Below the pieces are notes generated by a model. The model was given only the letters and a program-made list of their open reading frames with translations. It did not search any database and was not told where the DNA came from. A DNA stretch of 64,000 bases from Sphingomonas flavalba (GTDB taxonomy: Bacteria; Pseudomonadota; Alphaproteobacteria; Sphingomonadales; Sphingomonadaceae). Shown one piece after another: positions 2 to 43,400 of this stretch. The stretch is taken from assembly GCF_004796535.1 (NCBI RefSeq), contig NZ_SPHY01000003.1, positions 277,022 to 341,021 of the forward strand, written 5' to 3'. A program made the translations under genes and the position numbers. How positions within the stretch are numbered: the stretch's first letter is position 1; every line of letters starts with the position of its first letter.

Positions 2-1102
<1,101 letters not shown>

Positions 1103-1836: not shown

Positions 1837-1899
1837 CGGCCAGCCCGGCCGCCAAGAAAGGGATGGACTTTGCGGCGGCAGCCGGGCTATCGCGCAGCC

Positions 1900-1947
1900 A
1901 TGCAGTCGCTCGGCGGCCTTTTCCTGCTTCGACTTACACGCCCTTAG
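1900..1947 (+). CDS. Putative leuA leader peptide
   Basis: A 15-codon reading frame 108 bases upstream of leuA encodes MQSLGGLFLLRLTRP and ends in TAG. Five of its 15 residues are leucine, including a Leu-Phe-Leu-Leu-Arg-Leu cluster. This is the expected composition for a leucine-sensing attenuation peptide. Its stop codon lies inside a hairpin that can refold into an alternative structure. No strong ribosome site is seen before the ATG, which is the main weakness. Attenuation by Leu-codon stalling is established for leu operons elsewhere; here it is inferred from sequence alone. Confidence 0.65.
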   Translation: MQSLGGLFLLRLTRP

Positions 1948-1997
1948 GCGTGTTCCCCGTCGCGCGCCCGGTCCGGGCTGCGCACCGCGCCTAAGGG
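1936..1997 (+). promoter_or_regulatory. leuA attenuator: mutually exclusive hairpins
   Basis: Hairpin A has 7-base perfect arms at 1936-1942 (ACACGCC) and 1947-1953 (GGCGTGT) around a CTTA loop, and spans the leader stop codon. Hairpin B has 10-base perfect arms at 1941-1950 (CCCTTAGGCG) and 1988-1997 (CGCCTAAGGG). The arms share 1941-1950, so only one can form. A GC-rich hairpin (1962-1983) sits inside the loop of B. No T tract follows either structure, so whether control acts on transcription (perhaps Rho) or on translation is not decided by the sequence. Confidence 0.6.
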
Positions 1998-2054
1998 TTC
2001 AGCATCTTCAAGCCAGACGGGCATAGCCCCGCCGCTGATTCCGAAAGCCGCATC

Positions 2055-3722
2055 ATGATTGCCGATCCTTCGACCAAATACCGAGCGTTCCCGCAGGTGC
2101 CGATCGCCGACCGCCAATGGCCGTCGCGCACCATCACCCGCGCGCCGCGCTGGCTGTCCACCGACATGCGCGACGGCAACCAGGCGCTGATCGACCCGAT
2201 GGACAGCGAGAAGAAGCAGCGCTTCTTCGACCTGCTCGTCCGCGTCGGCGTGAAGGAGATCGAGGTCGGCTTCCCGTCCGCCGGGGCGACCGAGTTCGAC
2301 TATATCAGCGGCCTCGTCCGGTCCGGCCGCATCCCCGACGACGTGACCGTCCAGGTGCTGACCCAGTCGCGCCGCGACCTGATCGAGAAAAGCTTCGAGA
2401 GCCTGGAGGGCGCGCGGCGCGCGATCGTCCACCTCTACAACGCGGTGTCGCCGGCGTGGCGGCGGATCGTGTTCCAGATGGACCGCGCCGAGGTACGCCA
2501 GATCGCGGTCGACGGCGCCAAGATTCTGCGCGACGAGGCGGCGAAGCGGCCGGACACCGACTGGCATTTCGAATATAGCCCGGAAACCTTCTCCACCGCC
2601 GAGCTGGATTTCTCGGTCGAGGTCTGCGCGGCGGTGATGGACGTGCTGCGCCCGACGCCGGACCACCCGCTGATCCTGAACCTGCCGGCCACCGTCGAGG
2701 CGGCAACGCCCAACATCTATGCCGACCAGATCGAATGGTTCGGCCGCAACATCCCCAACCGCGACAGCGTCGTCATCAGCCTGCACCCGCACAACGACCG
2801 CGGCACCGGCGTCGCCGCCGCCGAGCTGGGCCTGATGGCCGGCGCCGACCGGGTCGAGGGCTGCCTGTTCGGCAATGGCGAGCGCACCGGCAACGTCGAC
2901 CTGGTGACGCTGGGCCTGAACCTCTACACTCAGGGCGTCGACCCGAAGCTGGACTTTTCCGACATCGATTCGGTGATCCAGACGGTCGAATATTGCAACG
3001 CCCTGCCCGTCCACCCGCGCCACCCCTATGCCGGCGAACTGGTGTTCACCGCCTTTTCCGGCAGCCATCAGGACGCGATCAAGAAGGGCTTCGCCGCGCA
3101 GGAGCAGCGCAACGACGATTATTGGGAAGTGCCCTACCTGCCGATCGACCCGGCCGATCTCGGCCGCAGCTACGAGGCGGTGATCCGCGTCAATTCGCAA
3201 TCCGGCAAGGGCGGCGTCGCCTGGGTGCTGGAACAGGACAAGGGGTTGAAGCTGCCCAAGCGGCTGCAGGCCGATTTCAGCCGCCACGTCCAGCAACTGG
3301 CCGACGACAACGGCCGCGAGCTGGACGCCGGCGACATCTGGTCGCTGTTCGAGCAGACCTACCGCCTGTCCGGCGAGCAGCGTTTCACCCTCGACGCCTA
3401 TGACGAAAGCCGGGCGCCCAACGGCGACCGCATCTTCGCCGGGCATATCGGCGTCGACGGCGCGCTGCGCTCGGTCGGCGGACGCGGCAACGGCCTGATC
3501 TCCAGCGTGCTCGCCGCGCTGAACAGCGGCTGCGGTGTCGACCTCGACGTCGCCGACTATAGCGAGCACGCGATCGGCAAGGGCGCCGGGGTGCACGCCG
3601 CCGCCTATGTCGAATGCCGAACGCCCGACGGCCGCAGCGTCTGGGGCGTCGGCATCGACCTCGACGTCGCCACCGCCTCCGTCCGCGCCGTGCTGAGCGC
3701 GGTCAACCGGTTGAACAGCTGA
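2055..3722 (+). CDS. leuA: 2-isopropylmalate synthase
   Basis: Condenses acetyl-CoA with 2-oxoisovalerate, the first committed step of leucine synthesis. The 555-residue length fits the longer LeuA type, with a catalytic TIM barrel and a C-terminal regulatory LeuA dimer domain (roughly residues 430-550). The N-terminal motif [12 protein letters not shown] (residues 37-48) supplies the metal-binding Asp, and HPHNDRGTG near residue 244 carries the metal-binding histidines. The ATG at 2055 gives the usual family N terminus (KYRxFP...WPSRTI). A Leu-rich leader peptide and competing hairpins lie upstream, suggesting leucine feedback. The 3' end overlaps the opposing kinase gene by 20 bases. Confidence 0.97.
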
Positions 3723-24359: not shown

Positions 24360-24436
24360 CGGGGAGTAGCTCAGCCTGGTAGAGCACTGTCTTCGGGAGG
24401 CAGGGGCCGGAGGTTCGAATCCTCTCTCCCCGACCA
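24360..24436 (+). tRNA. tRNA-Pro (anticodon CGG)
   Basis: A complete 77-base cloverleaf. The acceptor arms are CGGGGAG and CTCCCCG, and the D stem is GCTC/GAGC. The anticodon stem CTGTC/GGCAG closes the loop TTCGGGA with anticodon CGG, and the T arm contains TTCGAAT. CCA is encoded at 24434-24436. It reads proline CCG codons, heavily used in GC-rich genomes. Confidence 0.95.

Positions 24437-43310: not shown

Positions 43311-43400
<90 letters not shown>

What the first reader, a model, noticed from the sequence alone, without database searches (positions are those of the whole stretch)
1900..1997. Leu-rich leader peptide with competing hairpins before leuA
Seen directly: a 15-codon frame with five Leu codons, whose stop lies inside a perfect 7-bp hairpin (1936-1953) that is incompatible with a perfect 10-bp hairpin (1941-1950 with 1988-1997). 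This is classical attenuator layout. Established: leu operons of enterics use Leu-codon stalling. Unusual here is the lack of a T-tract terminator, so the mechanism may be Rho-dependent or translational.
Basis: partly seen in the sequence, partly recalled or inferred. Interest (0 to 1): 0.7.

Follow-up and report, generated by a model that had tools for sequence, protein, structure and literature searches.

The report
Leucine leader switch ahead of leuA
Ahead of the leucine-making gene leuA, this bacterium and most of the relatives checked carry a tiny leucine-rich reading frame whose RNA is predicted to fold back onto leuA's start region, so ribosomes held up for lack of leucine would likely open leuA for translation.

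Summary
In detail: MQSLGGLFLLRLTRP* (1900-1947) and both stems are there, and conserved well beyond Sphingomonadales. The leader precedes 94 of 98 LeuA genes of the window's type and 79 of 129 of a distant LeuA type across Alphaproteobacteria, against 8.0 in shuffles. The constant core is Leu-CGA-CTT-A, 5 nt, then a stem holding the leader's stop codon in its 5' arm; this stem covaries. No T-tract or downstream partner was found, so a classical terminator is not supported. Predicted folds open that region modestly when a ribosome sits on the Leu codons. I read it as a translational leucine attenuator whose sensor codons double as anti-RBS, the layout published as the LEU element of Actinobacteria; four actinobacterial leuA leaders show the Leu codon-5 nt-stem spacing (partly by eye). 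No expression data exist; the regulatory step is inferred.

The parts
1864..1893 (+). Predicted promoter: -35 TGGACT 1864-1869, -10 TATCGC 1888-1893, putting the start at or next to the leader ATG
   Evidence: read by eye; TGGAC lies at -45..-35 of the leader ATG in 47 of 88 loci and elsewhere in the 75 nt twice; prediction only
1900..1947 (+). Leader frame MQSLGGLFLLRLTRP*, five Leu codons
1930..1936 (+). Conserved CGA-CTT-A; CTT 1933-1935 is the gate codon, 5 nt before stem 2
1936..1953 (+). Stem 1, 1936-1942 with 1947-1953, excludes stem 2
1941..1950 (+). Stem 2, 5' arm, holding the leader stop codon
1988..1997 (+). Stem 2, 3' arm
1902..1917 (+). Predicted base stem, leader strand (1910-1917 with 2031-2038 the longest run)
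   Evidence: class-wide signal
2031..2051 (+). Predicted base stem, leuA strand: leuA -24..-4
2055..3722 (+). leuA, 2-isopropylmalate synthase, TIGR00970 type

Best explanation
The leader is most likely a translational leucine attenuator: its Leu-codon end is complementary to leuA's ribosome-binding region and is predicted to hold it partly shut, and a ribosome stalled there for lack of charged Leu-tRNA would free it. Stem 2, with the stop codon in its 5' arm, lies between the two strands and would bring them together (about 110 nt apart in the window). With enough leucine the ribosome runs to the stop codon, the Leu codons behind it are free again, and the leader re-pairs with the leuA start region (off). 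With too little leucine it sits on the Leu codons, pairing is broken and the start region is more open (on); CTT 1933 is the last codon before stem 2 must be melted. Shown: the frame, the codons, stem 2 and its covariation, the locus-specific complementarity across loci. Predicted by folding: closed and open states. Inferred: the stall, its effect on leuA, and transcription starting at the leader ATG.
For: Leader before 94 of 98 and 79 of 129 leuA genes of two types. Leu is 0.38 and 0.42 of codons in frame and 0.01-0.08 in the other frames. Leader-RBS duplex energy -14.51 against -11.91 (sd 0.42) and -13.55 against -11.22 (sd 0.35) for swapped partners (65 and 81 loci); the strongest cell by z of a 12 x 10 position scan is the same in both sets; that cell repeated in 23 further loci, 0 of 200 permutations. 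SD-like hexamer paired with the leader 0.47 and 0.50 native, 0.26 and 0.29 in chimeras; unpaired 0.27 and 0.32 free, 0.42 and 0.50 with a stalled ribosome. Window: leuA start region paired with the leader 0.44, falling to 0.00-0.02 with a ribosome at CTT1918, CTG1924 or CTT1927; unpaired 0.37 rising to 0.50-0.53, and 0.22 with a ribosome at the stop.
Against: The predicted opening is modest: over leuA -24..-4 it goes from 0.40 to 0.48 and 0.42 to 0.51, and exceeds 0.2 in 12 of 65 and 16 of 81 loci only. The window's leuA has no recognisable SD (dG -0.4 with the 16S tail I used), and by the hexamer measure its opening does not change (0.59 to 0.61). With a ribosome at the gate codon itself the window's start region opens little (0.43). 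In the 23 further loci the wider leader-RBS test was not significant (27 of 200) and a leader-against-leuA-codons control came near (11 of 200); a stretch upstream of the leader also shows a smaller excess. A prediction that loci with Leu instead of CGA carry AAGGAG before leuA failed (0 of 21, against 3 of 39), although CGAAG was found in 10 of 39 CGA loci and 0 of 21 others. PMC1262725 reports that changing Leu codons had no effect in the actinobacterial case. The model does not explain why A follows CTT.
Confidence: 0.5

Rival explanations
1. Rho-dependent transcription attenuation: a ribosome at the stop codon opens stem 2 and bares about 100 nt of RNA for Rho; a ribosome stalled on Leu codons leaves stem 2 closed and shields it, so leuA is transcribed.
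For: Stop codon inside the 5' arm in most loci; 3' arm freed with the ribosome at the stop (window 0.40 paired against 1.00); no intrinsic terminator; spacer C-rich and G-poor in the window's LeuA type (0.35 against 0.23).
Against: The other LeuA type has no such bias (C 0.26, G 0.25), and no comparison with ordinary 5' regions was made. It does not explain the leader-RBS complementarity.
Confidence: 0.22
2. A protein or other factor binds the conserved CGACTTA-stem RNA and controls leuA; the frame matters little. This was the authors' proposal for the actinobacterial LEU element (PMC1262725).
For: Conservation at nucleotide level: CGA 88 of 88, CTT 87 of 88, A after it 88 of 88; second base of the next codon never A.
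Against: Leu codons are enriched in one frame only, CTA can replace CTT and Leu codons can replace CGA, and the stem sequence can change wholly (Shinella, by eye).
Confidence: 0.12
3. Stem 2 itself is the off state (a pause or stop for RNA polymerase without U-tract) and a ribosome parked on the gate CTT keeps it from closing.
For: Fixed distance of gate and stem; masking the gate footprint loosened the 3' arm from 0.06 to 0.28 and 0.04 to 0.36 unpaired when RNA upstream was left out.
Against: With upstream RNA kept and a slightly shorter footprint the window's 3' arm stays 0.98 paired. Stalls at earlier Leu codons would leave the stem closed, the wrong direction for starvation.
Confidence: 0.08
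4. Classical transcription attenuator with an intrinsic terminator.
For: Leu codons, exclusive stems and stop-codon position follow the classical plan.
Against: Four or more T within 15 nt of stem 2 in 6 of 85 and 8 of 73 loci; no partner for the 3' arm beyond shuffles (4.62 against 4.46, 5.96 against 5.90).
Confidence: 0.04

Closest known systems
LEU element upstream of leuA in Actinobacteria (PMC1262725; abstract, Leucine section and Conclusion read)
   Same: Leader with a run of Leu codons before leuA; base stem of that run with the leuA SD region; helix inside; no terminator. In four actinobacterial loci fetched here a Leu codon, 5 nt and a long stem follow each other (L327 by script; L328 by script from 3 nt with its CCGCGACG core at 5; L329 and L330 by eye).
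   Different: Here CGA-CTT-A, a CCCCTGA/CCCTTAG stem with the stop codon in its 5' arm, and no pseudoknot examined. In two of the four actinobacterial loci the codon before the spacer is CTC followed by G, and my folds show the base stem in one of four.
Leu_leader of enterics (E. coli leuL, Rfam RF00512; recalled)
   Same: Leu-codon leader before a leu operon, rare Leu codons.
   Different: Terminator with U-tract there; Rfam finds no match here at gathering and only an unrelated sub-threshold hit up to E 10.
ilvIH and trp leaders of Alphaproteobacteria (PMC4117421 and PMC10117765, passages)
   Same: Leader frames before amino-acid genes in the same class; trpL is leaderless.
   Different: Other operons; in the passages shown for these two papers leuA had 0 occurrences.
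Macrolide/chloramphenicol-type translational attenuators (recalled)
   Same: A ribosome stalled on a leader frame frees the next gene's RBS.
   Different: Signal would be uncharged Leu-tRNA, not a drug, and the sensor codons lie in the RBS-pairing strand.

Membership tests
LEU element (Actinobacteria) | Leader frame with a Leu run before leuA | tested here: met
LEU element (Actinobacteria) | Base stem of the Leu run with the leuA SD region | tested here: inconclusive
   Strong across two sets, one of two tests in a third; in the window the pairing uses codons 2-6 and leuA has no clear SD
LEU element (Actinobacteria) | Pseudoknot or alternative helix inside the base stem | tested here: inconclusive
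   An inside stem is present; no pseudoknot search was made
LEU element (Actinobacteria) | Common origin with the actinobacterial sequences | tested here: inconclusive
   Model R1 hits 3 of 4 actinobacterial loci weakly (E 0.012, 0.014, 0.62)
Classical transcription attenuator | Control codons in a leader frame ending in or before the alternative stem | tested here: met
Classical transcription attenuator | Terminator hairpin with T-tract | tested here: not met
Classical transcription attenuator | Leucine-dependent stall and read-through | not testable with these tools
   needs expression data
Leu_leader, RF00512 | Match to the Rfam model | tested here: not met
Rho-dependent leader | C-rich, G-poor bare RNA after the leader stop | tested here: inconclusive
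   C 0.35, G 0.23 in the window's LeuA type; C 0.26, G 0.25 in the other; no control against other 5' regions

The most novel reading that the evidence does not exclude
One RNA device, Leu codon - 5 nt - stem with the Leu run as anti-RBS, controls leuA in both Alphaproteobacteria and Actinobacteria and stayed in place while the LeuA enzyme behind it was exchanged for a distant LeuA. Its codons are at once leucine sensor and translation lock, and the nearly invariant CGA-CTT-A is a dedicated slow-decoding gate abutting the stem.
Probability: 0.35. Interest if true: 0.78.

Novelty: new variant of a known kind. Interest (0 to 1): 0.6.

Why it matters
It is a candidate leucine-control element for much of a large bacterial class. 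In the class, all hits whose surroundings I compared lie before leuA (29 of 29; 30 of 30), and no Rfam family matches it. It resembles the actinobacterial LEU element, whose working was called unknown in 2005 (PMC1262725), and would make that question testable in easily handled Alphaproteobacteria. It may also be a case where codon choice is set by three demands at once: sensing, RNA pairing and ribosome position.

Tried and rejected
Intrinsic terminator and a fourth pairing segment: not found. A +1 frameshift at CTT-A fusing the leader to leuA: in the open frames printed one locus (L119) is open into leuA in that frame and others are not; rejected by eye, not by a test. CGACTTA as partner of the spacer: little excess overall (5.00 against 4.67, 4.00 against 3.99), although single loci such as L146, L148 and L167 show it. 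A first accessibility test showed almost no effect on the leuA start region; its ribosome states left out the RNA upstream, so I rest instead and report both. Other operons: the pattern CGACTTANNCGCCC in 142 Alphaproteobacteria gave 23 matches in 21 genomes, 14 before leuA by my reading (the window's own included) and 9 elsewhere, taken as chance; the reversed control pattern matched more often. Outside the class: one of the 94 genomes with a model hit among 397 of the phylum; the hit lies inside another gene. A betaproteobacterial (L332) and a Paenibacillus (L333) leuA upstream region were read by eye: no clear element. For the alignments I thinned 81 and 72 distinct rows to 62 and 66 and dropped L086 from the first and L145, L168, L186, L198 and L257 from the second as likely wrong sites; the model later matched L145, L186 and L257. 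L145, L168, L186, L198 and L257 stayed in the 65-locus set. No published leuA leader of Alphaproteobacteria turned up in ten paper searches (listings); the likeliest place, Vitreschak et al. 2004, is not held, so priority cannot be claimed.

Full report
WHAT IS THERE. The stretch 1895-2060 folds at -67.8 kcal/mol, z -2.57, 3 of 200 shuffles as good. Alone this would be suggestive only: 11 of 500 shuffles of the intergenic region hold a helix of 10 bp or more, but none of 2000 holds so Leu-rich a short ATG frame.

CONSERVATION, WINDOW'S LeuA TYPE. I took the 80 loci kept of 591 and the 18 loci with LeuA at 60% identity or more, the window's own among them. 94 of 98 carry Arg-Leu-x-Arg-Pro codons before leuA; the four without are L014, L052, L063 and L086, of which L014 has a similar frame ending in RLTCP. 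In 88 unique ones the Arg codon is CGA in 88, the Leu codon CTT in 87 and CTA in 1, the next base A in 88, the second Arg codon CGC in 88. The search imposed the amino acids, not these bases. The loci are the closest relatives by LeuA, so they are not independent.

CONSERVATION, OTHER LeuA TYPE. TIGR00973 LeuA was sought in 289 genomes of the class. Upstream regions of 130 of the listed matches were fetched; one was cut short, leaving 129. A scan that left the Leu codon's third base, its neighbours and the following base open (CTN-N6-CCN-NNN and a stem of at least 8 bp) found 79 of 129, against 8.0 in shuffles (highest 15) and 10 on the reverse strand; for the window's type 92 of 98 against 4.0 (highest 7) and 3. 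The Leu codon is CTT in 72 and 89, the next base A in 71 and 90, the codon before CGA in 47 and 89; otherwise it is mostly a Leu codon in the first set. A covariance model, R1, built from 61 of the 129 matches 90 of them, its own 61 sources among the sequences searched (67 of 99, 23 of 30; some matches are weak). So roughly a third of these leuA genes show no such leader.

SPECIFICITY. R1 finds one place per genome in 29 of 59 relatives, 52 of which have a LeuA match; comparing coordinates, all 29 lie within 200 nt upstream of LeuA on its strand. In the phylum it matches 94 of 397 genomes, 93 of the window's class; the 30 best all lie before a LeuA core motif on the same strand. The one hit outside the class lies in an unrelated gene. 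The other 63 were not examined in that call. R1 was built from the other LeuA type, yet its only match in the window up to E 10 is 1927-1999, E 4.5e-6. In the window's family seven genomes with R1 hits (G003, G011, G012, G027, G030, G031, G034) have the other LeuA type by identity and core motif, with the same leader.

FRAME AND CODONS. In the 27 nt before the gate codon Leu makes up 0.38 and 0.42 of codons in frame 0 and 0.01-0.08 in the other frames (76 and 86 unique loci), against 0.078-0.079 in LeuA genes. CTT makes up 98 of 235 and 132 of 303 of the Leu codons in the eight codons before the gate, against 156 of 1200 and 155 of 4229 in LeuA genes of the two types (30 and 98 loci). The codon two before the gate is Leu in 0.86 and 0.93. 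An ATG opens the frame in 66 of 77 and 88 of 90; the stop is exactly four codons after the gate's start in 68 of 77 and 67 of 90, and six in 22 more of the latter. The base after CTT is A in 70 of 76 and 86 of 86, while the second base of that codon is never A. I cannot explain this; it points to a constraint on nucleotides as well as on codons.

STEMS. Stem 2: 91.8% of cells paired, 8 of 12 pairs with two-sided changes, 37 such cells against 9.4 shuffled (61 loci); in the other LeuA type 95.8%, 6 of 10 pairs, 30 against 7.3 (61 loci). Sliding the partner by 1-3 columns drops pairing to 28-59%. These rows had been picked for a stem. Without that pick, 88 unique loci average 11.3 bp against 6.0 shuffled, and in loci picked by CGACTTA alone the best stem starts 3-6 nt after CTT in 45 of 54 and 80 of 85. 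Stem 1: 24 two-sided cells against 7.3, but in only 2 of 7 pairs, a number that 231 of 500 shuffles reach; real but weaker. A Shinella locus keeps CGACTTA and the spacing with a wholly different stem sequence (by eye).

NO TERMINATOR. Runs of four or more T within 15 nt of the stem occur in 6 of 85 and 8 of 73 loci; the 3' arm has no downstream partner beyond chance; the arm plus spacer is not unusually structured (mean z 0.50 and -0.03).

THE MISSED PART. Comparing the leader with leuA's start region locus by locus gave the main new result. Duplex energy of the Leu-codon end with leuA -25..-1 is -14.51 against -11.91 (sd 0.42) for partners swapped between loci (65 loci), and -13.55 against -11.22 (sd 0.35) (81 loci); a control stretch upstream of the leader gives smaller differences, -12.52 against -11.58 and -11.76 against -11.03. 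In a scan of 12 x 10 window positions with 25 permutations each, the strongest cell by z is the same in both sets: leader -12..+2 of the gate with leuA -24..-10, z -7.6 and -5.6; by energy a neighbouring cell equals it in the second set. Examples such as L137, L146 and L142 pair 8-10 bp into or next to the SD. In 23 further loci (7 of 30 skipped) that cell held, 0 of 200 permutations, z -3.1, while the wide comparison did not (27 of 200) and a control against leuA codons gave 11 of 200. Loci with CGA carry CGAAG before leuA in 10 of 39 and loci with Leu there in 0 of 21, but the matching expectation for the latter, AAGGAG, failed (0 of 21). None of these tests corrects for relatedness.

FOLDS WITH RIBOSOMES. 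With upstream RNA kept, the SD-like hexamer is paired with the leader with probability 0.47 and 0.50 in native RNAs and 0.26 and 0.29 in chimeras (p 1.1e-4 and 9.6e-7). It is unpaired 0.27 and 0.32 without a ribosome, 0.42 and 0.50 with one stalled before the gate, 0.38 and 0.36 with one at the stop; the gain exceeds 0.2 in 29 of 65 and 33 of 81. For the window this hexamer measure shows nothing (0.59 to 0.61; no clear SD, dG -0.4). Over 2031-2051 the window does respond: paired with the leader 0.44, falling to 0.00-0.02 with a ribosome at CTT1918, CTG1924 or CTT1927, 0.16 at CTC1909, 0.18 at the gate CTT1933 and 0.40 at the stop; unpaired 0.37 free, 0.50-0.53 at the three Leu codons, 0.43 at CTC1909 and at the gate, 0.22 at the stop. 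These are equilibrium folds of short RNAs and prove nothing about the cell.

START OF THE LEADER. TGGAC stands at -45..-35 of the leader ATG in 47 of 88 loci and elsewhere in those 75 nt only twice; the best -10-like hexamer at a spacing of 16-19 ends 5-11 nt before the ATG in 43 of these 47; 10 leaders have an SD-like 4-mer. This predicts transcription starting at or next to the ATG. Leaderless messages are common in the class (375 in Caulobacter, PMC4117421, passages; leaderless trpL, PMC10117765, passages).

RELATION TO KNOWN SYSTEMS. PMC1262725 (abstract, Leucine section, Conclusion) describes in Actinobacteria a LEU element: a leader with a Leu run, a base stem of that run with the leuA SD, a pseudoknot or alternative helix, mode of action unknown, with a report that Leu-codon changes had no effect. 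That is close to the layout found here. Four actinobacterial leuA regions from plasmid records show a Leu codon, 5 nt, then a long stem: L327 by script, L328 by script from 3 nt with its core at 5, L329 and L330 by eye with CTC as the codon. R1 reaches E 0.012 and 0.014 on two, 0.62 on a third and nothing on the fourth, against 4e-6 on a named Sphingomonas record. My folds show the base stem in one of the four. Common origin is open.

HOW IT LIKELY WORKS. I commit to translational attenuation (0.5): leucine plenty, ribosome passes, leader re-pairs with the leuA start; leucine short, ribosome sits on the Leu run, pairing is broken, leuA is translated. Stem 2 would act as a strut, and the 5-nt spacer would let it stay folded against a ribosome with CTT in its A site (the comparison with frameshift signals is recalled). 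That CGA in the P site slows the next codon is recalled, not shown. Rho-dependent attenuation is the main rival (0.22).

Noticed in passing
window 24360-24433 and 43311-43397: Two tRNA matches on the + strand (Rfam).
   Followed up: no
window 83-1102 and 1225-1836: ilvC, then a YceI-family gene, precede leuA on the same strand; ilvC's own leader, if any, lies beyond the window edge.
   Followed up: no
L081-L098 and L001-L080, leuA start regions: leuA of the window's type mostly lacks an SD-like 4-mer: present in 6 of 98.
   Followed up: partly
L326 (G292): In this genome the leader (R1 hit) lies some 400 nt before leuA with another open stretch between, cupin-like by eye, so the leader may head a small operon.
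   Followed up: no
L022: A record titled Arthrobacter sp. TPD3018 carries a LeuA 79% identical to the window's and a Sphingomonas-like leader; it may be mislabelled.
   Followed up: no
window 1936 and equivalents: The base after the gate CTT is A, and the second base of that codon is never A in 76 and 86 unique loci; no explanation.
   Followed up: partly
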